DNA of 32,459 nt, taken from positions 1,330,572 through 1,363,030 of the forward strand of contig NZ_GG657754.1 in the NCBI RefSeq assembly GCF_000158915.1, in the 5' to 3' direction. The DNA is from Streptomyces himastatinicus ATCC 53653 (GTDB lineage Bacteria > Actinomycetota > Actinomycetes > Streptomycetales > Streptomycetaceae). Position 1 is the stretch's first letter; every line of letters begins with the position of its first letter. The position numbers and the translations under genes were made by a program. The notes beneath the pieces were generated by a model, which saw nothing but the letters and a program-made list of their open reading frames with translations, was not told where the DNA came from and searched no databases. Below are positions 97 through 21,817 of this stretch, one piece after another.

Positions 97-145
97 GTGT
101 CTCGCAATCAGCTCAGGCAGATCTGGTCGGATCATCAGATGACAA

Positions 146-160
146 TGAAAACGATTATCG
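146..160. promoter_or_regulatory. Putative Zur box (divergent promoter)
   Basis: The 15-mer TGAAAACGATTATCG matches the Streptomyces Zur operator pattern TGAAAATnATTTTCA at 11 of the 14 defined positions. It is an AT-rich island in very GC-rich DNA, between the divergent secreted-protein start (96) and the operon start (254). An ACGAT-N7-ATCGT dyad (151-167) overlaps it. The box would allow zinc-dependent repression in both directions. The match is by eye; no binding data are available. Confidence 0.7.
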
Positions 161-253
161 ATATCGTCTAGGCGGTCAAGACGGGTGCCCCTGCCGCCAA
201 GGCCGCTGCCCGGCCTGCCCGGAACCTCAACCGCACGGCGACGAAGGAGAGTT

Positions 254-1510
254 GTGGCTCATCTGCTGATGGTGGAGAGCTGGGTCGGATCGATGAGCAG
301 GCTGCTGCCACGGGCGATCCGCGAGAACGGGCACGAGTTCACCTTCCTCACCCGTGACCTGCACCACTACCTGCGCTCCGCGCCCGAGGGCACCGCCCAC
401 CCGCTGCTCGCCGCGCGCCACGTGCTGACCGCCGACACCAACGACACCGCCACCCTGCTGCCGGCGGTCGAGCGGCTGCACACGGCTCTCGGTTTCGACG
501 GGGTCATCACCTCCTGCGACTACTACCTGCCGGTGGCGGCGCGCCTCGCGGACCGGCTGGGGCTTCCCGGCCCGTCGGCCGAAGCGGTGGGGAACGCCTG
601 CCGCAAGGACGCGACCCGGCGCGTCCTCGACGCCGCCGGAGTGCCCGGACCGCGGTTCGCGGTGCACTCCACGTGGGCCGAGGTGGCGGAAGGGGCCCGG
701 GAGATCGGCTATCCGCTGGTCGTGAAGCCCGTGGACCTGTGCGCCGGGATGTACGTACGGCGCGTCGACGACGAGGCCGCGCTGCGGGACGCGTGGCGTG
801 CGCTCGACGGCTTCCCGGTCAACGCCCGGGGCCAGCGCCGCTCCCCCGCCGTGCTGCTGGAGGAGCTGCTCGACGGCCCGGAGGTCAGCGTCGAGACCGT
901 GTCGTACGGCGGCACCACCGAGGTGATCGGGGTGACCGACAAGAGCGTCGGCGGGGCGCCCGCGTTCATCGAGACCGGGCACATGTTCCCCGCCGCCCTC
1001 GCATCCGCCGACGCCGCGGCCGCGCGCGAGACCGCGGTGCTCGCCCTGAAGGCGCTCGGCCTGGACGACGTCGTCGCGCACACCGAGATCAAGCTGACCG
1101 CCGCCGGGCCGCGCGTGGTGGAGGTCAATCCGCGCCCCGCGGGCAACCGCATCACCGAACTGATCCGCCATGTCACGGGGGTCGACCTGGCCACCGCCTG
1201 TGTGGACGTCGCCCTCGGCCACCGGCCCGATCTGCGGGGCTGGGACACGGGGATGCGCAGCGCCGCCATCGGATTCCTGGTGCCGGCCACCGCGGGCACC
1301 CTGGCCTCGGTCGACGGCGGTGACGCGGCGCGGGAGGCGCCGGACGTGCTGGAGGTCCAGCTCGCCGAGCCCGGCAGGAGCGTCGAGGCGGCCGGGAGCA
1401 ACAACGCATACCTCGGCCATGTCATGGCGGGCGATCCCGAAGGGCCCGGGGCCCGCGCCCGGGTCGAAGCGCTGCTGTCCGGACTGCGCCCGCGGGTGGT
1501 GGCCCCATGA
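254..1510 (+). CDS. ATP-grasp ligase (amino acid/peptide ligase type)
   Basis: ATP-grasp enzymes use ATP to activate a carboxylate as acyl-phosphate and join it to an amine or thiol. The roughly 418-residue protein has a Rossmann-like N-terminal part (VAHLLMVES...), a preATP-grasp region, the nucleotide-binding lysine in YPLVVKP near residue 159, the VLLEELLDGPE strand near 201-211, and the metal-binding EVNPRPAGNR motif near 291-300. The C-terminal 100 residues resemble the extra domain of L-amino-acid ligases. I chose the GTG at 254 because AAGGAGA (244-250) stands just before it; the open frame extends up to 185 and an ATG at 269 is too far from this site. It is the first gene of a ten-gene operon, and its stop overlaps the next start (ATGA). 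It probably forms the amide bond of a small dipeptide-like product. The substrates are unknown. Confidence 0.85.
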   Translation: MAHLLMVESWVGSMSRLLPRAIRENGHEFTFLTRDLHHYLRSAPEGTAHPLLAARHVLTADTNDTATLLPAVERLHTALGFDGVITSCDYYLPVAARLADRLGLPGPSAEAVGNACRKDATRRVLDAAGVPGPRFAVHSTWAEVAEGAREIGYPLVVKPVDLCAGMYVRRVDDEAALRDAWRALDGFPVNARGQRRSPAVLLEELLDGPEVSVETVSYGGTTEVIGVTDKSVGGAPAFIETGHMFPAALASADAAAARETAVLALKALGLDDVVAHTEIKLTAAGPRVVEVNPRPAGNRITELIRHVTGVDLATACVDVALGHRPDLRGWDTGMRSAAIGFLVPATAGTLASVDGGDAAREAPDVLEVQLAEPGRSVEAAGSNNAYLGHVMAGDPEGPGARARVEALLSGLRPRVVAP

Positions 1511-2355
1511 CCGCGCGCCCGCTCACCGCCGCGCCGCCGTGTTTCTCGTACGAGGAGCTGGCCGACCGGGTGCTGGACGGCGCCTTCGGGCCCGATCCGC
1601 GCACCCAGCGGATCGCCGTGGCCTTCACCACGCGCCAGGCCGTACGCCACGACGGCCGCAGCGGCGGCTATCGCAACGAGGTGCTCAGCCTGCGGCTGGG
1701 CGAGGCCGTCGGCTCGTGCGCGGTCGAGCCGGGCGCACTGCCCTACGAGGCGATCGACACCTGCGTCGGCGTGGACGTGGCCCGGCTGCTGCGCCACGAG
1801 CTGGCCCCGGTCCGCGTCGCCGCCCTCGACGCGTATCTCCTGCGGATGCTGCCGCACACCTCCGCGTCCGGTGCGCGCCCCCAGCCGCTGGCCGCCGGGA
1901 CATCGCTGGAGAAGTCCCGCGCCCGCGCCGAGGCCGTCACCGGGCTGCTCGGGCCGGGGCCGGGCCGGACCGTTCTGGTCGTCGGTGTCGTCAACTCCCT
2001 TCTGGAGAGCCTGCGTTCACGTGGCCTGGGCTATGTGGCCTGCGATCTCAAGGGCGGTACGACGGAATGGGGCGAGCCGGTCGCCACCGACGCGCTCGCC
2101 CAGCTGGACCGCTGTGACGCCGTGCTCGCCTCCGGCATGACGCTCGGCAACGGCACCTTCGAACCGCTGCGGGAACACGCGCTGCGCCACGGGAAGCCAC
2201 TGGTGATGTTCGCGCAGACCGGCAGCGCGATCCTGCCGCGCTTCGTGGGCGCCGGGGTCACGGCGGTGTGCGCCGAGCCCTACCCGTTCTTCTGGCTGGA
2301 CGGCGGCCCCGGGCTGATCCACTGCTACGGAGGGCACTACGGGGGTCCCGCATGA
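1507..2355 (+). CDS. DUF4213/DUF364 protein (putative heavy-metal chelation family)
   Basis: This 282-residue protein has the two-part layout of the DUF4213-DUF364 family. An enolase-N-terminal-like segment (about residues 15-90, with AFTTRQAV and a GGYRNEVL stretch) is followed by a Rossmann-like half that starts near residue 155 (VLVVGVVNSLLESLR) and includes ASGMTLGNGTFEPL and AQTGSAILPRF. The family founder's structure was interpreted as having an active site with a possible role in heavy-metal chelation; the enzymatic reaction is not established. The gene overlaps its neighbours by ATGA on both sides, so it is translationally coupled between the ligase and the PLP enzyme. In a Zur-controlled operon a role in metal handling or metallophore assembly or breakdown is plausible, but this is inference. 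Confidence 0.75.
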   Translation: MTARPLTAAPPCFSYEELADRVLDGAFGPDPRTQRIAVAFTTRQAVRHDGRSGGYRNEVLSLRLGEAVGSCAVEPGALPYEAIDTCVGVDVARLLRHELAPVRVAALDAYLLRMLPHTSASGARPQPLAAGTSLEKSRARAEAVTGLLGPGPGRTVLVVGVVNSLLESLRSRGLGYVACDLKGGTTEWGEPVATDALAQLDRCDAVLASGMTLGNGTFEPLREHALRHGKPLVMFAQTGSAILPRFVGAGVTAVCAEPYPFFWLDGGPGLIHCYGGHYGGPA

Positions 2356-3443
2356 CCACGGCCGTCCATCACCCCACCGCCAACGGCGACCTCCTCGCGC
2401 TGCTCGGCCGCACCCCGCTCGCCCGGATCACCACCGATCTGCCCTGCCCCCATCCCGGTTTCTGGGCCAAGCTCGAAGGGCTCGGCGCCGGTGGTATGAA
2501 GGCCCGCGCCGCGGTGTCCATGCTGCTCGGCGCCCGGGAGCGCGGTGAACTGCGGCCCGGTGCGCCGGTGGTGGAGTCCACCTCCGGCACCCTGGGGGTC
2601 GGCCTGGCCTTCGCGGGCCAGGCGCTCGGCCATCCCATCGTGCTGGTCTGCGACACCGAGCTGGAACCGTCGATGCGGCGGTTGCTGCGCACCTACGGCG
2701 CCCAGCTGGAACTGGTCGACCGCCCGGCGGCCGAGGGCGGCTGGCAGGCCGCCCGTCTCGCCCGGCTGCGCGCGCTGCTGGCCCTGCTGCCGGACGCCTA
2801 CTGGCCCGACCAGTACAACAACCCCGACAACACGGCCGGTTACGCCTCGCTCGCCCACGAACTGACCGCCCAGCTCGACCACCTCGACATCCTGGTGTGC
2901 AGCGTCGGCACCGGCGGCCACAGCGCGGGCATCGTCCGCCCGCTGCGCGGGCGCTGGCCCGGGCTGCGGCTCATCGGCGTCGACGCCACCGGCTCGACCA
3001 TCTTCGGCCAGCCCGCCCGGCCCCGGCTCATGCGCGGCCTGGGCAGCAGCATCCATCCGCGCAACGTGGCCTACGGCGCCTTCGACGAGGTCCACTGGGT
3101 CGGCCCGGCCGAAGCGGCGGACTCCTGCCGACGGCTGGCCCGGGGCAGCTTCGTCAGCGGCGGCTGGAGCACCGGCGCTGTCGGACTCGTCGCCGCCTGG
3201 GCCGCCCGCGTCCACCCCGGCGCCGTGGTCGCCACCGTCTTCCCCGACGGGCCGCACCGCTACCTCGGCACCGTCTACGACGACGACTTCACCACCGCCC
3301 ACGGCGTCGACCTCGCGACCGCCGCAACCCGTCCCGTGGAGATCGCCCACCCGCGCGCCGTCGAGGCCACCGGCTGGGCCCGCTGCACCACCGTCACCGA
3401 CCCGCTGACCGGCGGGACCCCGATCCGGGAAGAGAGCCCGTGA
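2352..3443 (+). CDS. SbnA/cysteine-synthase-like PLP-dependent enzyme
   Basis: This is a fold-type II PLP enzyme of 363 residues. The Schiff-base lysine is K50 in GGMKARAA, the substrate loop is STSGTLG (76-82), the phosphate-binding glycine loop is SVGTGGHSAG (184-193), and S273 in GGWSTGA is placed to touch the pyridine nitrogen. The loop reads TSGTLG rather than the TSGNTG of true cysteine synthases. Segments such as DAYWPDQYNN, VDATGSTIFG and VFPDGPHRYLGTVYDDDF recall SbnA, the 2,3-diaminopropionate-forming enzyme of staphyloferrin B synthesis. It probably does a beta-replacement on an activated serine to supply a non-protein amino acid. No SbnB-like partner is present, so the nitrogen or other nucleophile donor is unknown. 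It overlaps the genes on both sides (ATGA and GTGA). Confidence 0.82.
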   Translation: MTTAVHHPTANGDLLALLGRTPLARITTDLPCPHPGFWAKLEGLGAGGMKARAAVSMLLGARERGELRPGAPVVESTSGTLGVGLAFAGQALGHPIVLVCDTELEPSMRRLLRTYGAQLELVDRPAAEGGWQAARLARLRALLALLPDAYWPDQYNNPDNTAGYASLAHELTAQLDHLDILVCSVGTGGHSAGIVRPLRGRWPGLRLIGVDATGSTIFGQPARPRLMRGLGSSIHPRNVAYGAFDEVHWVGPAEAADSCRRLARGSFVSGGWSTGAVGLVAAWAARVHPGAVVATVFPDGPHRYLGTVYDDDFTTAHGVDLATAATRPVEIAHPRAVEATGWARCTTVTDPLTGGTPIREESP

Positions 3444-4519
3444 ACGTCAGCCAACGCACCGTAACGCTCCACCTCGCCGAGCCGCTTCGCATCTCCCGCT
3501 CCACCATGGCCGCGCGCGACGCCGTGTGGCTGCGGGTCGAGCACGCGGGACAGCGCGGCCACGGGGAGGCCGTCAGCAGCGCGTACTACGGCCTGGACAC
3601 CGCCACCCTCCGGCGGCTGCTGCACGAAGCGGCCCTGGAGCTGGGCCGCTTCGCCGACCCGGAGAGCGCGCTGCGGGCCCTGTGGGAGGAGGAGCCGGGC
3701 CGTCGGCCCGCCGCGGTGACGGCGGCCGTCGAATCCGCGCTGCTCGACTTGTGCGGCAAGCGCGCGGGAGTCCCCGTCCACCGGCTCGTCGGCGCCACCG
3801 CCGAGCCGTTCGCCGCCACCGCCCGCACCCTCGGCATCGTCCCGGCCGAGCGCGCCGCGGCGCGGGCCCGGTGCCTGACCGACAGCGGGTTCTCCGTCAT
3901 CAAGGTCAAGGCCGGTGCCGCGGACCCCGAGGACGACATGGCGCGGATACGGGCCGTACGGACCGCCGCGCCCCACGCCCGGCTGCTGCTCGATCCCAAC
4001 GGCGCCTGGAGCGTGGCCCGGGCGCGCGAACTGCTCCCCATATGCGCGGAGTTGGGAGTCGAAGCTGTCGAACAGCCCATCGGGCCGGGCGACCCCGAGG
4101 CGCTGGCCCGCCTCGCCGAACACGCGCCGCTCCCCATCATCGCCGACGAGGACGCGGTGTCCTACGAGGACGTCCGCCGTCTCGCCGGACGGGTGCAGGG
4201 TGTCAACGTCAAGCTCGCCAAGTGCGGTGGCGTCCACGCGGCGCTGCGGATCGCCTCGCTCATCGAGGGCAGTGGCACCGCGCTGATGCTCGGCTGCCTG
4301 ACCGCCAGCACCCTCGGTATCGCGCCCGCCGTCCACCTCGCGGGCCACGCCCGCTGGACCGACCTGGACGGACACCTGCTGCTCGCCCACGACCCGTGGA
4401 CCGGCATCGGCGGCACCGACGGCGTGGTGCGGGCCAGTGGCCGCCCCGGGCTGGGCGTACGGCCGCTCGCCACCACCGAGGAAGAGGGAGAGGAGGGCCG
4501 CCATGAGAACGTGGCGTGA
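3440..4519 (+). CDS. Enolase-superfamily dipeptide epimerase-like enzyme
   Basis: This 359-residue member of the muconate-lactonizing/dipeptide-epimerase subgroup keeps the catalytic pattern. The first KxK motif is K155/K157, metal ligands are D185 (LLDPNGAW), E211 (EQP) and D236 (ADED), and the opposite general base is K258 in NVKLAK. A DLDG sequence at 308-311 matches the D-x-D motif that dipeptide epimerases use to bind the substrate alpha-ammonium group, which favours a dipeptide substrate over a cycloisomerase role. It would invert the C-terminal residue of an L,L-dipeptide to give an L,D product. GTG was chosen as start because it overlaps the previous stop (GTGA). With an ATP-grasp ligase three genes upstream, ligation followed by epimerization is a coherent route. 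Confidence 0.82.
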   Translation: MNVSQRTVTLHLAEPLRISRSTMAARDAVWLRVEHAGQRGHGEAVSSAYYGLDTATLRRLLHEAALELGRFADPESALRALWEEEPGRRPAAVTAAVESALLDLCGKRAGVPVHRLVGATAEPFAATARTLGIVPAERAAARARCLTDSGFSVIKVKAGAADPEDDMARIRAVRTAAPHARLLLDPNGAWSVARARELLPICAELGVEAVEQPIGPGDPEALARLAEHAPLPIIADEDAVSYEDVRRLAGRVQGVNVKLAKCGGVHAALRIASLIEGSGTALMLGCLTASTLGIAPAVHLAGHARWTDLDGHLLLAHDPWTGIGGTDGVVRASGRPGLGVRPLATTEEEGEEGRHENVA

Positions 4520-5756
4520 ACTGCGCGGCTTCCCGCTCGCCATCCGGCTGCTCCTGGTCAACCAGCTCGGTGTCAACACCGGCTTCTATCTGCTCATCCC
4601 CTATCTCGCCACCCACCTCGGCGAGGATCTGGGCATGTCGGCGGCGGTCGTCGGCATCGTCCTCGGGGTGCGCAACCTCAGCCAGCAGGGCCTGTTCCTG
4701 ATCGGCGGTTCGGCTGCGGACCGGCTGGGCGCGCGGGGCGTCATCATCGCCGGGTGCGCCGTACGCACCCTCGGATTCGCGCTGTTCGCGCTCGGCGACG
4801 GGCTGCCGGTGCTGCTGGCCGCGTCCGTGCTCAGCGGGCTCGCGGGGGCGCTGTTCAACCCGGCCGTGCGGGCGTATCTCGCCCGTGAGGCGGGCGGGCG
4901 CAGGGCGGAGGCGTTCGCCCTGTTCAACGTCTTCGCCACCACCGGCGCCCTCATCGGGCCGCTGCTCGGCAGCGCGCTGCTGCTGGTGGACTTCCGGGCC
5001 TCGGCGCTCACCGCCGCCGCCATCTTCGCGGTGCTGACCGTAGCCCAGGCACTGGTGCTGCCCGCCCGGGAGGTCGAGCCGTCGACGGGCGGTGTCCTCG
5101 CGGACTGGCGGGAAGTGGTGGGCAACCGCGCCTTCCTGGCCTTCGCGCTGGCCATGGTCGGCATGTTCACCCTGGAGAACCAGCTGTATCTGCTGCTGCC
5201 CGCCGGGGCGCGCCACGCCACCGGCTGGGACGGCGCGGCCGGGCTCGTGTTCCTCGTCGGTACGCTCGCCAACCTGGCGCTGCAACTGCGCGTCACCCGC
5301 GCCCTGAAGCGGCGCGGCAGCCGGGCGCGGTGGATCGGCGCGGGCCTCGCCCTCATGGGGCTGGCCTTCGTCCCGCCCATGCTGGTGGCGGGTGCCTCGC
5401 CCGGCGGGCGCGGCACGGCGGTGCTGTACGCGCTGCCGGTGCTGGCCGGTGCGCTGCTGCTGTACCTCGGGGTGATGGCCGCCCAGCCGTTCGTGATGGA
5501 GCTGATCCCGCGCTTCGGACGGCCGGAGCTGACCGGCACCTACTTCGGGGTGTTCTACGTGGTGTCCGGCATCGCCGCGGCCGTCGGCAACACGGCCGTC
5601 GGCTGGGCCATGGACACCGGGGAGGGCGGGGGCGCCGCCTGGCTGCCCTGGGCCTGCTGCGCGGGCTTCGGCCTCGTCTCGGCGGGCGGTGTCGCCTGGC
5701 TGCACCGCTCCGGTGCGCTGCCCGCCCGTACCGAAGCCGTGGTGGCGGCGGCGTGA
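4503..5756 (+). CDS. MFS transporter (probable metallophore exporter)
   Basis: This major facilitator superfamily protein of 417 residues has about 12 hydrophobic segments. The family loop motif between helices 2 and 3 is present as GSAADRLGARGV. The N-terminus MRTWRELRGFPLAIRLLLVNQ resembles MDR-type H+ antiporters of the MdtG/YdeE kind. The ATG at 4503 follows a strong GGAGG and overlaps the end of the epimerase gene by 17 bases. Its place directly after the biosynthetic genes and before the uptake genes suggests that it exports the small molecule made by this operon. An importer of the metal complex is the less likely alternative, because a complete ABC importer is encoded downstream. Confidence 0.85.
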   Translation: MRTWRELRGFPLAIRLLLVNQLGVNTGFYLLIPYLATHLGEDLGMSAAVVGIVLGVRNLSQQGLFLIGGSAADRLGARGVIIAGCAVRTLGFALFALGDGLPVLLAASVLSGLAGALFNPAVRAYLAREAGGRRAEAFALFNVFATTGALIGPLLGSALLLVDFRASALTAAAIFAVLTVAQALVLPAREVEPSTGGVLADWREVVGNRAFLAFALAMVGMFTLENQLYLLLPAGARHATGWDGAAGLVFLVGTLANLALQLRVTRALKRRGSRARWIGAGLALMGLAFVPPMLVAGASPGGRGTAVLYALPVLAGALLLYLGVMAAQPFVMELIPRFGRPELTGTYFGVFYVVSGIAAAVGNTAVGWAMDTGEGGGAAWLPWACCAGFGLVSAGGVAWLHRSGALPARTEAVVAAA

Positions 5757-6592
5757 GCGGGGACAGGAGAAGATCCGGCAATCTGCTCACCGACAGCCCG
5801 GAGTTGTACGAGGCCCGCTTCCCGGACCCCGAGCGGCTGGCCGGACGCTGGGCGGAGGACACCTTGCGGCGGTACGGCGCGGGGCCACGTGTCCTGGACA
5901 TCGGCTGCGGCACCGGGCGCGACGCCGCGTATCTGCACCGCGCGGGCCGGGCGGTCATCGGCGCCGACCTCTCCCCGGCGATGCTCGACTACGCCCGCGA
6001 ACGGCATCCCGGGCCGGAGTACCGCCGGGCCGACCTGCGCGGTTTCGCGCTCGGCACGTTCGACGCCGTCGTCTGTCTGGACAGCGCCCTGCTGTACTGC
6101 CACGGCAACGACGACCTCGACGGCTTCCTCGGCTCCTGCCGCCGCGCCCTCGCGCCCGGTGGCCTCCTCATGGCGGAGATGCGCAACGGCGCGTACTTCC
6201 TGGGCCGCACCGACCTCCTGGACACCCCGGCCGACGACGCGTTCACGTGGCGGGGAACCGGCTACCGGTCCACCACCACCCTCCGCGTCGACCGGACCGC
6301 GCAACTGCTGCGCCGCACCCGGGTGTGGACCTCCGACGACGGATCGCCGCCGGTCGAGCAGCGCTCCGCGTGGCGGCTGCTCCTCCCCCAGGAACTGCGC
6401 CACTTCCTGACCGCGCACGGCTTCACCGTCCTCGCGCTGTACGACGGGCCGGGGCCGCGCACCGATCCGCCGTGGCGGGACGGCGACACCCCCGGCGTCA
6501 CGGCCGACGCCGACCGGCTGCACCTCATCGCCCGGCTGGACACGCCTCAGGGCGTGTCCGCACACCACCAGCCAAGGACACCGCATGCATGA
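5753..6592 (+). CDS. Class I SAM-dependent methyltransferase
   Basis: This 279-residue protein has a class I methyltransferase core. Motif I is VLDIGCGTGRD (about 47-57), followed by a GADLSPAML acidic-loop segment, a RADLRGF segment, and FDAVVCLDSALLY as motif IV. It transfers a methyl group from S-adenosylmethionine; the acceptor cannot be read from sequence. The GTG start overlaps the MFS stop (GTGA), and the gene ends inside the start of the binding-protein gene. It lies between exporter and importer, so it probably tailors the operon's product, for example by N- or O-methylation. This is inference from context. Confidence 0.85.
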   Translation: MSGDRRRSGNLLTDSPELYEARFPDPERLAGRWAEDTLRRYGAGPRVLDIGCGTGRDAAYLHRAGRAVIGADLSPAMLDYARERHPGPEYRRADLRGFALGTFDAVVCLDSALLYCHGNDDLDGFLGSCRRALAPGGLLMAEMRNGAYFLGRTDLLDTPADDAFTWRGTGYRSTTTLRVDRTAQLLRRTRVWTSDDGSPPVEQRSAWRLLLPQELRHFLTAHGFTVLALYDGPGPRTDPPWRDGDTPGVTADADRLHLIARLDTPQGVSAHHQPRTPHA

Positions 6593-8171
6593 CGATCCCG
6601 CCCACCGCCTCCGCCACCCGGGCCTGCACCGCCGCGGCTTTCTCGCCGCCTCGGGCGCGGCCTCGCTCGGCGCGCTCGCCCTCACCGGATGTGGCGGCTC
6701 CCCCTCCGGCGCGTCCGGACACGGCGATGGCAAGCCGAAGCGTGGCGGGCGGCTGCGCGCCGCGTTCGCCGGTGGCGGGGCGAGCGAGAGCCTCGATCCG
6801 CATCTGGGCAGCCTCTTCGCCGACGCCGCCCGCGCCAAGGCGCTCTACGACAAGCTCGCCGACTACGACGCCTCCCTCGTGGCCCGGCCGCGCCTCGCCT
6901 CGGCGTGGGAGCCGAACGCGGGCCTGGACCGCTGGAAGGTCACCCTCAGGGAGGCCACCTTCCACGACGGAAAGCCGGTGACCGCGGACGATGTCCTCTT
7001 CAGCTACCGCCGCATCGCCGACCCGGAGAAGACGTTCCGCGCCAAGGCGTCGCTGGAACCCATCGATCTGAAGGCCAGCCGGGCACTGGACCGGCGGACC
7101 GTGGAGTTCGTCCTCAAGCGCCCGACCGCCGAATTCCCCAATGTGCTCGCCGCGTTCGGCGCGTACATCATCCCCGAGGGCGCCGGGGACTTCGACGACA
7201 AGCCGGTCGGCAGCGGGCCGTTCCGCCTCGTGTCATTCTCCCCCGGCCGCTCCACCGTCCTGCGGCGCAACGACGACTACTGGGACGGCGCCCCCTACCT
7301 GGACCGGCTGGAGTTCATCGTCGCCAACGACGAGTCCGCGCGCGTCAACTCCCTCCTCGGCGGCCAGGTGGAATACGCCCATGAGCTGAGCCCCACCACG
7401 GCGCGCGCCCACGAGAAGGCGGGCCAGATCGAGATCGTCCGGCTGCCGGGCAGCGCCATGCAGGCGTTCGCCATGAAGACCGACCGGCCGCCCTTCGACG
7501 ACAAGCGGGTCCGTGAGGCGTTCTTCCTGATCGCCGACCGGAAGGAGCTGCTGAACGGCGCCCTGTCCGGGGCGGGCGAGATCGGCAACGACCTCTTCGG
7601 CAAGGGGTACGCGTACTACGCCGACGGCCTGCCGCAGCGCGAACAGGACCTCGGACGCGCGCGCAAGCTGCTGAAGCAGGCGGGCGCGGAAGACCTCCGG
7701 GTCACCCTCGACACGTCGGCCGTCGCCGCCGGATTCACCGAGGCCGCCGGAATCTTCCGCGACCAAGCCGCCAAGGCCGGGGTCACCATCAGGGTCCGCA
7801 ACGGCAGCAAGGACTCCTACTGGAACGACATCCTCGACTCCGGCACCCTGTGCAGCTACCGCTCCGGTGCCATGCCCATCGAATCCCATCTCTCCCAGCG
7901 GCTGCTCACCGGCTCCACCACCAACGCCACCAAGTGGCAGCACAAGGACTTCGACGCCCTCTACCAGCAGGCCCAGTCCACCAGGGACGACAAGGACCGC
8001 GCCGCGGTGTACGAGCGCATGCAGCGCCGTCTGTACGCCGAAGGCGGCTTCCTGGTCTGGGGGTTCGCCGACTGGATCATCGGCACGGCCCGCACCGTGG
8101 GCGGCGTGGACCACCGGGCACCGGCCAACACCCTGGACTGGGCCCGGTTCGACAAGGTCTGGCTGCGGTGA
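6585..8171 (+). CDS. ABC transporter solute-binding lipoprotein (family 5, peptide/nickel type)
   Basis: This 528-residue extracytoplasmic binding protein belongs to the SBP_bac_5 family (DppA/OppA/NikA). Its N-terminus combines a twin-arginine stretch (RRGFL) with a lipobox LTGC, lipidated Cys near residue 36, so it is a Tat-exported lipoprotein. Family features include the RGGRLRAAF strand, WKVTLREATFHDGKPVTADDV, the GSGPFRL segment and ADRKELLNG. It delivers its ligand to the two permeases encoded directly downstream. Ligands of this family are di- and oligopeptides, nickel or metal-chelator complexes. Given the Zur boxes and the biosynthetic genes, the likely cargo is the zinc-loaded metallophore. 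The start at 6585 overlaps the methyltransferase gene by eight bases. Confidence 0.9.
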   Translation: MHDDPAHRLRHPGLHRRGFLAASGAASLGALALTGCGGSPSGASGHGDGKPKRGGRLRAAFAGGGASESLDPHLGSLFADAARAKALYDKLADYDASLVARPRLASAWEPNAGLDRWKVTLREATFHDGKPVTADDVLFSYRRIADPEKTFRAKASLEPIDLKASRALDRRTVEFVLKRPTAEFPNVLAAFGAYIIPEGAGDFDDKPVGSGPFRLVSFSPGRSTVLRRNDDYWDGAPYLDRLEFIVANDESARVNSLLGGQVEYAHELSPTTARAHEKAGQIEIVRLPGSAMQAFAMKTDRPPFDDKRVREAFFLIADRKELLNGALSGAGEIGNDLFGKGYAYYADGLPQREQDLGRARKLLKQAGAEDLRVTLDTSAVAAGFTEAAGIFRDQAAKAGVTIRVRNGSKDSYWNDILDSGTLCSYRSGAMPIESHLSQRLLTGSTTNATKWQHKDFDALYQQAQSTRDDKDRAAVYERMQRRLYAEGGFLVWGFADWIIGTARTVGGVDHRAPANTLDWARFDKVWLR

Positions 8172-9121
8172 CGGGTCTGCGCTCCTGGCTCGCCCGGCGG
8201 CTGCTGCTCGGCGCGGCGCAGACCGTGGCCGTGGTGCTGCTGGTGTTCGCGCTCACCGAGGCGCTGCCGGGCGATGCCGCCGTGGCCCTGGCCGGGGACC
8301 AGCCCGACCCGGCGCGGATCGCCGCCATCCGGGAGGCCATGGACCTGGACCGGCCCGCGTACGAACGCCTGCTGGACTGGGCGGCCGGGCTGCTCCACGG
8401 CGACCTGGGCACCTCGCTGGTCTCCGGCCGCCCCGTCGGCTCGTACGTCAGCGACGGGTTCGGCCCGACGCTGCTGCTCGCCGGGCTCACGCTGCTGCTC
8501 CTGGTGCCGCTGGGGGTCGGTCTCGGTGTGCTCGCGGCCCGCCACGCGGGGCGCCGTACGGACCGGGCCATCAGCTCGGTGGCGCTCGGTGTCTACGCCG
8601 TCCCCGAATTCGCCCTCGGCACGCTCCTGGTGACCGCCTTCGCGCTGCGGCTGGGCTGGTTTCCGCCGACCGCCGTCGGCTACGGCACCGATCTGCTCGC
8701 CCACCCCGCCACCCTGGTGCTCCCCGTGCTCGTGCTGCTGTCCCGGCCGGTGTGTTCGCTGACCCGTCTGGTGCGCGCCGGAATGATCGACGCGCTGGCC
8801 TCGCCGTACGTCGCCCAAGCCCGCCGGTACGGCGTGTCCGGTGTCCGGGTGCGCTACGCACACGCCCTGCCGAACGCGGTCGCCCCGGCCGCCCAGCACC
8901 TCGCCCGCACCGTGGACTGGCTGCTGTGCGGCGTCATCGTCGTGGAGGGCCTCTTCGTGATCCCTGGGCTGGGAACCGTCCTGCTGAACGCGGTCGCCGA
9001 ACGCGACATGCCCGTCGTCCAGGGGCTCGCCGTGGTGTTCGGGCTCATCACCGTCGTCCTGAACACCGGTGCCGATCTGGTGGCCCACCGCTTCGCTCCC
9101 CGGGCGGAGGTGACGGCGTGA
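8168..9121 (+). CDS. ABC transporter permease, DppB/NikB type
   Basis: This 317-residue inner-membrane permease belongs to the dipeptide/nickel importer class. It starts with a first helix after GLRSWLARRLLLGAAQT, followed by a long extracytoplasmic loop with the family's AIREAMDLDRPAYERLLDW pattern and HGDLGTSL segment. The EAA loop that docks the ATPase is seen around SPYVAQARRYGVSGVRVRYAHALPNAVAP. GTG at 8168 is the start, because it overlaps the binding-protein stop (GTGA). It forms a heterodimeric channel with the next gene product. Confidence 0.9.
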   Translation: MTGLRSWLARRLLLGAAQTVAVVLLVFALTEALPGDAAVALAGDQPDPARIAAIREAMDLDRPAYERLLDWAAGLLHGDLGTSLVSGRPVGSYVSDGFGPTLLLAGLTLLLLVPLGVGLGVLAARHAGRRTDRAISSVALGVYAVPEFALGTLLVTAFALRLGWFPPTAVGYGTDLLAHPATLVLPVLVLLSRPVCSLTRLVRAGMIDALASPYVAQARRYGVSGVRVRYAHALPNAVAPAAQHLARTVDWLLCGVIVVEGLFVIPGLGTVLLNAVAERDMPVVQGLAVVFGLITVVLNTGADLVAHRFAPRAEVTA

Positions 9122-9939
9122 GCACACACCTCGGCACGTGGGGGCGCTATGTCCTCGCCGCCGTGCTCGCCGGTGTCCCGCTCGCCCTGGCCCTGTTGGG
9201 GCCGTTCTTCGCGGGCGAGGCCGGGCCGCGCGCCGTGTCCTTCACGCTCGGCGGCGGCCACTGGCTCGGCACCGACTTCACCGGCCGCGACGTGTGGCGG
9301 CAGATCCTGCTCGGCGGACGTCCGGTGGTCCTGGTCGCGCTCGCCGCGACAGCTCTCACCTATCTGGTCGCCCTGCCGCTGGGGCTGCTGGCCGCGCTGA
9401 CCCATCGGCGGCGGCTGGAAGACCTGCTCATGCGCCCCCTCGACGTGCTGCTCGCCGTGCCGTCGCTGCTGCTGATTCTGCTGGTGGCCACCGTCGCCGC
9501 GCCGGGCCCCGCGGGGCTCGCCCTGCTGGTGGCGCTCGTCAACATCCCGGACGCCGCCCGGATCGTACGCGCCGCCGCGGCCGAGGCCGCCTCGCGCCCC
9601 GCCGTGGAGGCGCTGCGCATGCAGGGCGAGAGCGGGTGGCGGATCGGGGTCGGCTACGTCGGCCGGTCCACCGTGCGCACCCTCGCCACCGACGCCGGTA
9701 TCCGGCTCACCGGGGTGCTCTATCTGGTGGCCACGGCCGCGTTCCTGGGTGTCGGTGTCGCACCGGACGCCGCGGACTGGGCCGTCATGGTGGACCGCAA
9801 CCGCACCGGGCTGTTCGTCCAGCCCTGGGCGGTCGTGGTGCCCGCGCTGCTGATCGTCGCCCTGACCGTGGGAAGCAACCTGCTGTTCGACGCCGTACTG
9901 GAGCGCCGTGGGCAACCGGATAAGGGGGTACGGACATGA
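9118..9939 (+). CDS. ABC transporter permease, DppC/NikC type
   Basis: This 273-residue permease is the partner of the preceding DppB-type subunit. The family hallmark LGTDFTGRDVWRQILLGGR follows the first transmembrane segment, and an ATPase-docking loop is visible around ASRPAVEALRMQGESGWRIGVGYV. About five to six membrane segments are expected. GTG 9118 overlaps the upstream stop, and its own stop overlaps the ATPase start (ATGA). It belongs to the importer that probably returns the metal-loaded product of this operon to the cytoplasm. Confidence 0.9.
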   Translation: MSTHLGTWGRYVLAAVLAGVPLALALLGPFFAGEAGPRAVSFTLGGGHWLGTDFTGRDVWRQILLGGRPVVLVALAATALTYLVALPLGLLAALTHRRRLEDLLMRPLDVLLAVPSLLLILLVATVAAPGPAGLALLVALVNIPDAARIVRAAAAEAASRPAVEALRMQGESGWRIGVGYVGRSTVRTLATDAGIRLTGVLYLVATAAFLGVGVAPDAADWAVMVDRNRTGLFVQPWAVVVPALLIVALTVGSNLLFDAVLERRGQPDKGVRT

Positions 9940-11372
9940 ACGCGGTCGCGGAGATCGAGGACTTGCGCATCGAGGTCGGCGGCCGGGCCATCGTCGACGG
10001 GGTGAGCCTGCGGGCGCTGCCGGGGAAGGTCACCGCGCTGGTGGGCTCGTCCGGCAGCGGCAAGACCACCACGGGCCTCGCGCTGCTCGGCGAGTACCCG
10101 GCGGGGGCGAGGGTCACCGGCCGGGTCCGGGTGGCCGACGGCCTGGCCGGATACGTGCCCCAGCACCCGGCAGCCGTCCTCAACCCGGCCCGCCGGGTCG
10201 GCGCACTGCTCGGCGACATCGCGCGCGGCCAGGTGCGGAGCCTGCCGCGCTCCGAGCGCCGCGCCGCCGCGCGCGAACACGTCTTCACCGCCCTGTCGCT
10301 CGCCCAACTCCCTGACAGGGATGAGGTGTTGCGCCGCTATCCGCATCAGCTGTCGGGCGGCCAGCAGCAGCGTGTGGTGCTCGCGCAGGCGCTGCTCCTC
10401 GGGGCCAGGGTGGTGGTCGCGGACGAACCGACCACCGGGCAGGACCCGGTGACGAAGCGGCGCATCGTCGAGCGGCTGTCCGCGGTCGCCGCGCAAGGCA
10501 TCGCCGTGGTGCTGCTCAGCCACGACCTCGACGTGGTGCGGACGCTCGCCGACGAGGTCGTGGTGATGCGCGACGGCCGGGTGGTGGAGTCGGGACCGGC
10601 CGAGCGGGTGTGGCACGCCCCCGCCCACGCCTGGACCCGTCAACTCCTCGCCGCACACGGGCCAGCGCCGAAGGCCACGGGGCGCGTGCCGCCCGGCCAG
10701 GCCGTCCTGCGGGTGCGCGATCTGACGGCACGCCACGGGGCCACTCCCGTACTCCGCACCGGCGACCTCGCCGTCAGCGGCGGCACCTGTCTGGCCGTCC
10801 TCGGCCCCTCAGGCAGCGGCAAGACCACCCTCGGCCGCTGTCTGGCCGGACTCCACCGGGACCACGACGGACAGGTGCTGCTCGACGGGACGCCCCTGCC
10901 GCGCAGCCTGCGCTCGCGCACCCGGGAGCAGATCGCCGCCGTCCAGTACGTCTTCCAGGACGCGCGGGCCGCCTTCGACGAACACCGGCCGGTGCTGGAC
11001 CAGGTGGCGCGCACGGCGATACGGCTCAGGGGCGTCGCCCCGGCCACGGCACGGGCCGAGGCGCGGACGGTCCTGGACCGCCTCGGGCTGGTGGACGAGC
11101 TGGTGCACCGGCTGCCCGGGCAGCTGTCCGGGGGTGAACTCCAGCGGGCGGCGCTGGCCCGCGCCCTGCTCGCCCGGCCACGGGTGCTGGTGTGCGACGA
11201 GATCACCTCGGGCCTGGACACCGTCACCCGGCGCGGCTTCCTCGATCTGCTCGCCACGCTGCTGCGCGACCGCGACGACCTGGCGCTGATCCTCATCACC
11301 CATGACGCGGCCACCGCGGCGCTCGCCTCGCGGACCGTGGTCGTGGAGGCGGGTGAGGCCATCGAGCACTAG
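9936..11372 (+). CDS. Fused double ABC ATPase (DppD-DppF type)
   Basis: One 478-residue chain carries two complete nucleotide-binding domains, so a single polypeptide energizes the two-permease importer. Domain 1 has Walker [10 protein letters not shown], signature LSGGQQQ, Walker [11 protein letters not shown] and H-loop LLSHD. Domain 2 begins near residue 260 and has Walker [10 protein letters not shown], signature LSGGELQ, Walker [11 protein letters not shown] and H-loop LITHD. Domain 1's linker and Q-loop region looks shortened compared with stand-alone DppD proteins. It is the last gene of the coupled operon. Its TAG stop is only a few bases upstream of the second Zur-like box, leaving no room for a terminator, so read-through into the ribosomal protein genes is possible. 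Confidence 0.9.
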
Positions 11373-11376
11373 CTTT

Positions 11377-11391
11377 TGGTTATCATTTTCA
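11377..11391. promoter_or_regulatory. Putative Zur box before rpmB-rpsN
   Basis: Read on the minus strand the 15-mer is TGAAAATGATAACCA, which matches the Streptomyces Zur pattern TGAAAATnATTTTCA at 11 of the 14 defined positions; the left half-site is perfect. It sits 74 bases before the L28 start and just behind the operon stop. Zinc-independent L28/S14 paralogues are classic Zur targets in Streptomyces, so this box independently supports zinc control of the whole locus. Confidence 0.8.
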
Positions 11392-11464: not shown

Positions 11465-11701
11465 ATGTCCGCCCACTGCCAACTCACCGGCCGCCGGCCC
11501 GGCTTCGGCAACCACGTCTCCCACTCCCACCGCCGCACCAAGCGCCGGTTCGACCCCAACATCCAGCGCAAGCGCTACTGGCTGCCCAGCGAGGGGCGCC
11601 ATGTCCGGCTCACGCTCAGCGCCAGGGCCGTGAAGACCGTCGACAGCATCGGCGTCGAAGCGGCCGTGGCCCGCATCCGCGCCCGGGGAGGAAAGGTCTG
11701 A
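11465..11701 (+). CDS. rpmB: Ribosomal protein L28, zinc-independent (C-minus) paralogue
   Basis: This 78-residue protein is clearly L28 ([22 protein letters not shown] family core). The zinc-ribbon form carries two CxxC pairs, but this copy keeps only one cysteine (HCQLTG) and lacks the second pair near the C-terminus, so it cannot hold structural zinc. Such paralogues replace the zinc-bound L28 during zinc starvation, freeing zinc from ribosomes. The ATG at 11465 follows a GAGAGGA ribosome-binding site. The gene overlaps the next one by one base (TGATG), so the pair is co-translated. A Zur-like box stands upstream. Confidence 0.95.
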
Positions 11702-12006
11702 TGGCGAAGAAGAGCAAGATCGCCAAGAATGACCGGCGGCACGCGATCGTCGCCCGTTACGCCCAGCGCCGCGCCCAGTTGAAGGCGCTCATCGCAGCCC
11801 CCCACACCCCGGATGAGGAACGTCTCGCCGCCGAGCGGGAGCTGCGCCGCCAGCCACGCGACGCCAGCGCCACGCGCGTACGCAACCGGGACTCCATCGA
11901 CGGCCGCCCCCGGGGCCATCTGCGCGCCTTCGGCCTGTCCCGCATCCGGCTGCGCGAGATGGCGCACGCGGGTGAGCTTCCCGGGGTGACCAAGAGCAGC
12001 TGGTGA
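11701..12006 (+). CDS. rpsN: Ribosomal protein S14, zinc-independent paralogue
   Basis: This is the 101-residue long form of S14, with the N-terminal [13 protein letters not shown] and the C-terminal [26 protein letters not shown]. The short zinc-binding S14 has about 61 residues and four cysteines; this protein has none. It is a small-subunit protein used when zinc is scarce. The start overlaps the L28 stop. A strong hairpin 20 bases after the stop ends the unit. Confidence 0.95.
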
Positions 12007-21735: not shown

Positions 21736-21817
21736 GCCTGTTCCTTCCTCTTCTGTGACATGGCCTTCGCCTCCGATCCGGGCGTCGTCCGGTGATCAGG
21801 CAACCCGATCCGGTACA

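What the first reader, a model, noticed from the sequence alone, without database searches (positions are those of the whole stretch)
146..11391. Candidate undescribed zinc-metallophore system: Zur-flanked ten-gene make-export-import operon without NRPS
The sequence shows ten same-strand genes with every junction overlapping: ATP-grasp ligase, DUF364 protein, SbnA-like PLP enzyme, dipeptide-epimerase-like enolase, MFS exporter, methyltransferase and a complete dipeptide/nickel-type ABC importer. Zur-like dyads lie on both sides, and zinc-independent L28/S14 genes follow. Known zincophore routes (NRPS coelibactin, opine-type nicotianamine-like, EDDS) have different gene sets; no NRPS, opine dehydrogenase or SbnB is seen. 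The inferred chemistry is an activated serine to a beta-substituted amino acid, ATP-grasp ligation to a dipeptide, C-terminal epimerization and methylation. The result would be a small L,D-dipeptide chelator taken up by a dipeptide-type importer.
Basis: partly seen in the sequence, partly recalled or inferred. Interest (0 to 1): 0.9.

Follow-up and report, generated by a model that had tools for sequence, protein, structure and literature searches.

The report
Zinc-switched chelator operon built around DUF364
Ten overlapping genes in a Streptomyces chromosome, sitting behind a predicted zinc-sensor (Zur) site, likely make, release and take back a small zinc-binding molecule by a route for which our searches found no description, and two of its enzymes, one from the uncharacterised DUF364 family, recur side by side near predicted Zur sites in many other actinobacteria.

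Summary
Ten + strand genes (254-11372) overlap at all nine junctions. A Zur box (146-160) lies in a promoter spacer (139-167); a second (11377-11391) precedes L28/S14 genes short of zinc-binding cysteines.

The zinc-metallophore reading is well supported; the product chemistry is only inferred. All ten genes in this order occur at 82 of 94 close-relative loci; eight more end at a contig edge. A site scoring >=15 lies upstream in 92 of 94; one of the two misses has no upstream sequence. A Rhodococcus plasmid carries the same ten genes.

New here: this DUF364 subfamily sits with an SbnA-type PLP enzyme in otherwise different operons: 42 of 44 further Streptomyces loci (both misses end at contig edges), 41 of 44 with a Zur site >=18, and 14 of 15 loci fetched from other genera. 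A GHMP kinase joins in 34 of 44. No SbnB passes its cut-off in the genome, so the PLP enzyme's C-N bond is probably kept.

Most likely: a zincophore family with a PLP-DUF364 core; the window is its ATP-grasp/epimerase/methyltransferase branch. The EDDS genes could not be compared.

The parts
139..167 (+). predicted promoter: ATGACA, 17-base spacer, TATCGT
   Evidence: 9 of 12 consensus matches, mean 0.0 in shuffles
146..160 (.). predicted Zur box lying in the promoter spacer
   Evidence: matrix score 20.7; site >=15 upstream of the first gene in 92 of 94 relative loci
254..1510 (+). ATP-grasp ligase, L-amino-acid-ligase type
   Evidence: ATP-grasp_4 and LAL_C2; best solved relative 3vot, L-amino acid ligase BL00235
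1507..2355 (+). DUF364 protein
   Evidence: PF04016; AlphaFold2 model pLDDT 90.2, best fold match the DUF364 structure 3npg
2352..3443 (+). SbnA/cysteine-synthase-type PLP enzyme with the catalytic lysine motif GGMKARAA
   Evidence: TIGR03945 best family; SbnA 5d84/5d87 best solved relatives; motif in 93 of 94 relatives
3440..4519 (+). enolase-superfamily epimerase, dipeptide-epimerase-like (KxK, DLD)
   Evidence: motifs in 85 and 80 of 94 relative loci by exact pattern
4503..5756 (+). MFS transporter, probable exporter
5753..6592 (+). class I SAM methyltransferase; several N-methyltransferases among its weak best solved relatives
6585..8171 (+). family 5 substrate-binding protein (dipeptide/nickel type)
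8168..9121 (+). ABC permease 1
9118..9939 (+). ABC permease 2
9936..11372 (+). ABC ATPase with two nucleotide-binding domains in one chain
   Evidence: two ABC_tran stretches
11377..11391 (.). second predicted Zur box, in front of L28-S14
   Evidence: matrix score 25.5, but this site helped to build the matrix
11465..11701 (+). ribosomal protein L28 with one cysteine
11701..12006 (+). ribosomal protein S14 without cysteine

Best explanation
The ten overlapping genes at 254-11372 form one operon that is predicted to be repressed by zinc-bound Zur and would make, export and re-import a small amino-acid-derived zinc chelator (a zincophore). Inferred route: the SbnA-type PLP enzyme joins the beta-carbon of an activated serine to the amino group of a second amino acid; because no SbnB is encoded to split that product, the new C-N bond stays, giving an N-(2-amino-2-carboxyethyl) amino acid, an opine-like metal-binding core. 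DUF364 acts on that core (reaction unknown; I favour a second condensation). The ATP-grasp ligase then adds an amino acid by an amide bond, the epimerase inverts one residue, the methyltransferase methylates (probably on nitrogen), the MFS protein exports the product, and the SBP-permease-ATPase system brings the zinc complex back. Shown by the calls: gene content, order, conservation, Zur-like site in a promoter spacer, lack of SbnB at cut-off. Inferred: every reaction, zinc binding, Zur binding.
For: All ten genes in order at 82 of 94 relative loci and, by its own annotation, on Rhodococcus plasmid pRZP2, also Embleya and genus g251. Zur-like site >=15 upstream in 92 of 94; sites >=18: 101 within 450 bases upstream of the ligase gene, 12 elsewhere in 1.77 Mb of the same loci. 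Promoter with the box in its spacer. Same DUF364 subfamily beside a SbnA-type PLP enzyme in 42 of 44 other Streptomyces loci, with an MFS gene in 44 of 44, a FecCD permease in 34 (my count) or a Dpp-type importer in 5, and a Zur site >=18 in 41; Markov copies of those loci gave 0 sites. 14 of 15 loci fetched from other genera have the PLP neighbour. SbnB best 52.8 bits against cut-off 326.9. DUF364 was linked to metal transport and chelation from gene context in 2010 (PMC2954201, passages).
Against: No metabolite, expression or binding data. The genome has five Fur-family proteins, so another metal sensor is not excluded, though recalled iron- and nickel-box patterns fit badly. The window's upstream site departs from the consensus at three of 15 bases. 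L072 carries only the first five genes, with no importer found. L159 scores 14.9, L254 (same operon, other genus) below 15. Epimerase motifs were not found by exact pattern in 9 (KxK) and 14 (DLD) of 94 loci, some cut by contig ends. NCBIfam cut-offs for SbnA and the epimerases are not reached.
Confidence: 0.72

Rival explanations
1. It is a member of the known aminopolycarboxylate (EDDS-like) zincophore class: the PLP enzyme makes an Asp-Ser type core and the rest decorates it, so the pathway is a relative of the Amycolatopsis EDDS genes and only looks new because those genes could not be compared.
For: EDDS is Zur-repressed in an actinomycete and was found through its Zur sites (PMC4993170, PMC9252823, passages). 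A PLP C-N bond-forming core would suit both. Three Amycolatopsis species carry this DUF364 subfamily in the listed hits.
Against: No EDDS gene sequence was available. A. japonica does not appear among the 120 listed hits of the Prauserella-type DUF364 search, where other Pseudonocardiaceae do (capped list, weak evidence). ATP-grasp, epimerase and methyltransferase are not needed for EDDS (recalled structure).
Confidence: 0.15
2. The operon makes a dipeptide antibiotic or metal-enzyme inhibitor (bacilysin/dapdiamide logic) that happens to be made under zinc starvation, and the importer takes up something else.
For: The ligase is closest to L-amino acid ligases and shares the ATP-grasp/PLP logic of dapdiamide-type pathways (weak DdaF hit).
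Against: Importer genes are in the same overlapping unit at 82 of 94 loci; relatives with other enzymes keep a metal-type importer and the Zur site.
Confidence: 0.08
3. It serves another metal (nickel, cobalt) or several metals, with Zur as one of the switches.
For: The binding protein's best NCBIfam model is a nickel type (149.5 bits, cut-off 600).
Against: Zur-type site conserved; no good nickel- or iron-box match (recalled patterns); L28/S14 neighbours are zinc-saving genes.
Confidence: 0.1

Closest known systems
Staphylopine / pseudopaline (opine-type zincophores)
   Same: Small amino-acid-built chelator, make-export-import genes together, zinc control; the C. diphtheriae paper's passages describe CntABCDF as a NikA/OppA-like staphylopine importer (PMC6711530)
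   Different: No opine dehydrogenase or nicotianamine-synthase-type gene among the ten; here PLP enzyme, DUF364, ATP-grasp ligase and epimerase
[S,S]-EDDS of Amycolatopsis japonica (aminopolycarboxylic acid metallophore)
   Same: NRPS-free, Zur-repressed zincophore of an actinomycete (passages)
   Different: Gene-by-gene comparison was not possible; relation open
Staphyloferrin B SbnA/SbnB route to 2,3-diaminopropionate
   Same: SbnA-type PLP enzyme is the nearest characterised relative; one published scheme has SbnA join Ser to Glu (PMC3179956, passages)
   Different: No SbnB over cut-off in the genome; where 5d84 has Ser (VSTTG) the window has Gly (VGTGG), so Glu as partner cannot be assumed
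DUF364 proteins of known structure (3l5o, 3npg)
   Same: Predicted fold matches 3npg; metal-related gene context proposed in 2010
   Different: Only 12-13% identity to 3npg; this subfamily pairs with a PLP enzyme and a Zur site, which the 2010 passages do not mention
L-amino acid ligases (BL00235, BacD) and dipeptide epimerases
   Same: Fold family and motifs
   Different: Used together in a Zur-type operon; substrates unknown
Coelibactin (NRPS zincophore of S. coelicolor)
   Same: Zur-controlled, Streptomyces (passages)
   Different: No NRPS among the ten genes

Membership tests
Zur-regulated zincophore system | Zur site at the promoter, conserved in relatives | tested here: met
   sequence evidence only, no binding test
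Zur-regulated zincophore system | Zur binds the site and zinc represses the genes | not testable with these tools
   needs EMSA and RT-qPCR
Zur-regulated zincophore system | biosynthesis, export and import genes in one unit | tested here: met
   82 of 94 relatives
Zur-regulated zincophore system | secreted product binds zinc | not testable with these tools
   needs LC-MS
Opine-type metallophore (staphylopine) | opine dehydrogenase and nicotianamine-synthase-type enzyme in the operon | tested here: not met
   none among the Pfam hits of the ten proteins
NRPS zincophore (coelibactin) | NRPS in the operon | tested here: not met
   the rest of the genome was not searched for NRPS
SbnA-SbnB diaminopropionate pathway | SbnA equivalog | tested here: not met
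   239.7 bits, cut-off 349.95
SbnA-SbnB diaminopropionate pathway | SbnB partner | tested here: not met
   best 52.8 bits, cut-off 326.9, whole genome
EDDS aminopolycarboxylate pathway | homologues of the EDDS genes | not testable with these tools
   sequences and Spohn 2016 not held; collection scan already used
DUF364 (PF04016) | profile over cut-off and the enolase-like + Rossmann-like fold | tested here: met
   28.5 of 23 bits; 3npg fold match, TM 0.60-0.63 by target
Dipeptide epimerase | KxK and C-terminal DxD motif | tested here: met
   window sequence; pattern in 85 and 80 of 94 relative loci
Dipeptide epimerase | NCBIfam equivalog cut-off | tested here: not met
   137.8 of 343 and 119.5 of 500 bits

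The most novel reading that the evidence does not exclude
This DUF364 subfamily is the signature enzyme of a separate class of metallophore biosynthesis, beside NRPS, NIS and opine routes: a GHMP kinase activates serine (or threonine), the SbnA-type PLP enzyme and DUF364 turn it into a minimal zinc chelator, and branches decorate it, by ATP-grasp ligation, epimerisation and methylation in the window, by HemK-like methyltransferase or dioxygenase elsewhere. 27 of 44 loci show no enzyme from my reference set other than kinase, PLP enzyme and DUF364 (my count; genes outside the set not excluded).
Probability: 0.45. Interest if true: 0.9.

Novelty: new variant of a known kind. Interest (0 to 1): 0.78.

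Why it matters
Few zincophores are known and antiSMASH 7 lists NRP, opine-like and aminopolycarboxylic types (PMC10320115, passages). If right, at least 68 of 295 sampled Streptomyces genomes carry this operon and 55 places in the same sample carry related ones (my counts), a large and easily tested set. It also gives DUF364, a family without known activity in the passages read, a concrete partner enzyme and a substrate to test: the product of the SbnA-type enzyme.

Tried and rejected
Rejected or abandoned: (1) that L28/S14 belong to the unit: found at 1 of 94 relatives; one other-genus locus, L253, also has them near the cluster. (2) That the family is nearly confined to Streptomyces: the phylum search with my profile found 7 of 396 genomes, 2 of 236 genera at E<=1e-15, but the Pfam search in the class found 32 of 394 genomes, 9 of 137 genera; the two samples and thresholds differ. 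(3) Any DUF364 will do: G909 (L241), the strongest Pfam match, has no PLP partner and no Zur site; I left it out of the 17-locus count. L199 and L200, distant hits, had no DUF364 relative at 1e-10 and were left out of the 44. Of 55 second-group places I fetched 44. (4) EDDS gene content: none of the passages read gives it. (5) The methyltransferase as an aminocarboxypropyl transferase: one locus (L076) has SAM synthetase and three methionine-salvage genes beside the Zur site, but these occur at 1 of 156 loci, so it does not carry to the window. (6) ORF clustering of the second group was too noisy; I used reference proteins instead. (7) The kinase as a PduX-type serine/threonine kinase is recalled; NCBIfam gives only weak, mixed GHMP hits.
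Full report
The operon. One search gives ten + strand open frames between 254 and 11372 that overlap at each of nine junctions. One search names them: ATP-grasp ligase with an L-amino-acid-ligase C-terminal domain, DUF364, PLP enzyme, enolase-type epimerase, MFS transporter, class I methyltransferase, family 5 binding protein, two permeases, and a two-domain ABC ATPase. The PLP enzyme is closest to SbnA among solved structures and in NCBIfam, below the equivalog cut-off. The ligase is closest to L-amino acid ligase BL00235, the epimerase to structures annotated as muconate cycloisomerase or dipeptide epimerase. The methyltransferase has only weak solved relatives, several of them N-methyltransferases. 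Proteins 95% and 93% identical to the DUF364 protein are from Streptomyces botrytidirepellens and Streptomyces sp. NPDC001700; the window's own genome is an unnamed 11-Mb one.

The switch. The site TGAAAACGATTATCG (146-160) lies in the spacer of a promoter-like pair at 139-167. It differs from TGAAAATGATTTTCA at three bases and fits the S. coelicolor motif tGaNNatSatNNtCa except at two defined positions (motif from PMC5472717, passages; fit counted by eye). My scoring matrix rests on seven own-genome sites that I picked for matching the consensus; several lie at znu-like genes, family 5 binding proteins and L28 genes. Among 94 relative loci, a site scores >=15 within 400 bases upstream of the ligase gene in 92 and >=18 in 87; L159 scores 14.9 and L160 has no upstream sequence. 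Sites >=18 number 101 within 450 bases upstream and 12 elsewhere in 1,769,882 bases of the same loci; several of the 12 score over 20 and may be real Zur sites of other genes. By simple identity to the consensus, 91 of 94 have at least 11 of 15 bases, a level reached in about 0.4% of shuffled regions.

Conservation. One search found relatives of the DUF364 protein in 122 of 295 Streptomyces genomes, in two groups: 68-82% identity (68 genomes with the window's own) and about 36-45% (55 places), plus a few distant or fragmentary hits (my counts from its list). One search found 285 related stretches in named genomes and kept 80, 79 Streptomyces and one Wenjunlia. Over 14 unnamed and those 80 loci, all ten genes lie in the same order at 82 of 94; eight loci end at a contig edge; two (one strain twice) have the genes in frame-broken pieces; L072 has the first five only; L099 has six and part of the seventh.

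A wider family. I fetched 44 of the 55 second-group places. The PLP enzyme lies beside DUF364 in 42 of 44; the two misses, L168 and L185, end at contig edges. An MFS gene is near in 44, a GHMP kinase in 34, a HemK-like methyltransferase in 16, a PhyH-type dioxygenase in 6, a Dpp-type importer in 5, a FecCD permease in 34 (my count). A Zur site >=18 is present in 41 of 44, none in Markov copies; L165, L168 and L198 have none. The kinase was found at none of the 94 first-group loci. In other genera, the class search hit 32 of 394 genomes, 17 outside Streptomyces; of 15 fetched, 14 have the PLP partner; with three plasmid loci added, 15 of these 17 loci have a site >=18 and 16 one >=15. The exception, L241, is a DUF364 protein without PLP partner or site. 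Listed protein hits name Prauserella, Amycolatopsis, Lentzea, Saccharopolyspora, Micromonospora, Tsukamurella and others.

How it probably works. SbnA-type enzymes add an amine to an activated serine; SbnB then releases diaminopropionate (recalled, with the schemes in PMC3179956, passages). The genome has no SbnB over its cut-off, so the first product probably keeps its C-N bond: an opine-like amino acid with several metal ligands. Many second-group loci show only kinase, PLP enzyme and DUF364 from my reference set, so these three may suffice for a chelator. DUF364 is predicted to have the 3npg fold (AlphaFold2 pLDDT 90.2; Foldseek E 2e-6, TM 0.60-0.63 by target), with invariant C179, D180, N215 and others across 26 sequences. 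Its reaction is unknown. In the window the ligase, epimerase and methyltransferase would add, invert and methylate; export by MFS and import by the Dpp-type system follow from their families. None of these reactions was tested.

Known or new. Ten library searches listed no paper that by its title or abstract describes this gene set; 15 papers were seen as passages only. The library misses most subscription journals, including the EDDS gene paper. The EDDS relation is the main open point. I rate it a new variant of a known kind (zincophore operons), with a fair chance of a separate biosynthetic class.

Noticed in passing
L076 890-5330 (G006): A second operon, divergent from the PLP-DUF364 operon across two strong Zur sites, encodes a UbiE-like methyltransferase, SAM synthetase and methionine-salvage genes MtnA, MtnB and ARD, as if the pathway spends SAM and leaves methylthioadenosine; seen at 1 of 156 loci.
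   Followed up: partly
L026 2668-4215 (G000:C2 near 8462214) and L028 5484-7088 (G000:C2 near 10029483): Two further family 5 binding proteins of the same genome have a Zur-like site just upstream: possible uptake of other zincophores.
   Followed up: no
L253 11326-13700; L093 825-1116: L28-S14 genes with a Zur-like site also lie near the DUF364 cluster in another genus and near the operon in Wenjunlia.
   Followed up: no
L072 and L078 (both G012): One Streptomyces genome carries both groups, and its first-group copy has only the first five genes.
   Followed up: no
L238 22302-22580: On the Rhodococcus plasmid a DUF1490 gene follows the operon, behind a second Zur-like site at 21803.
   Followed up: no
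L239 7043-13837: A Tsukamurella tyrosinosolvens plasmid carries FecCD-ABC-SBP-DUF364-MFS-kinase-PLP behind a Zur-like site.
   Followed up: partly
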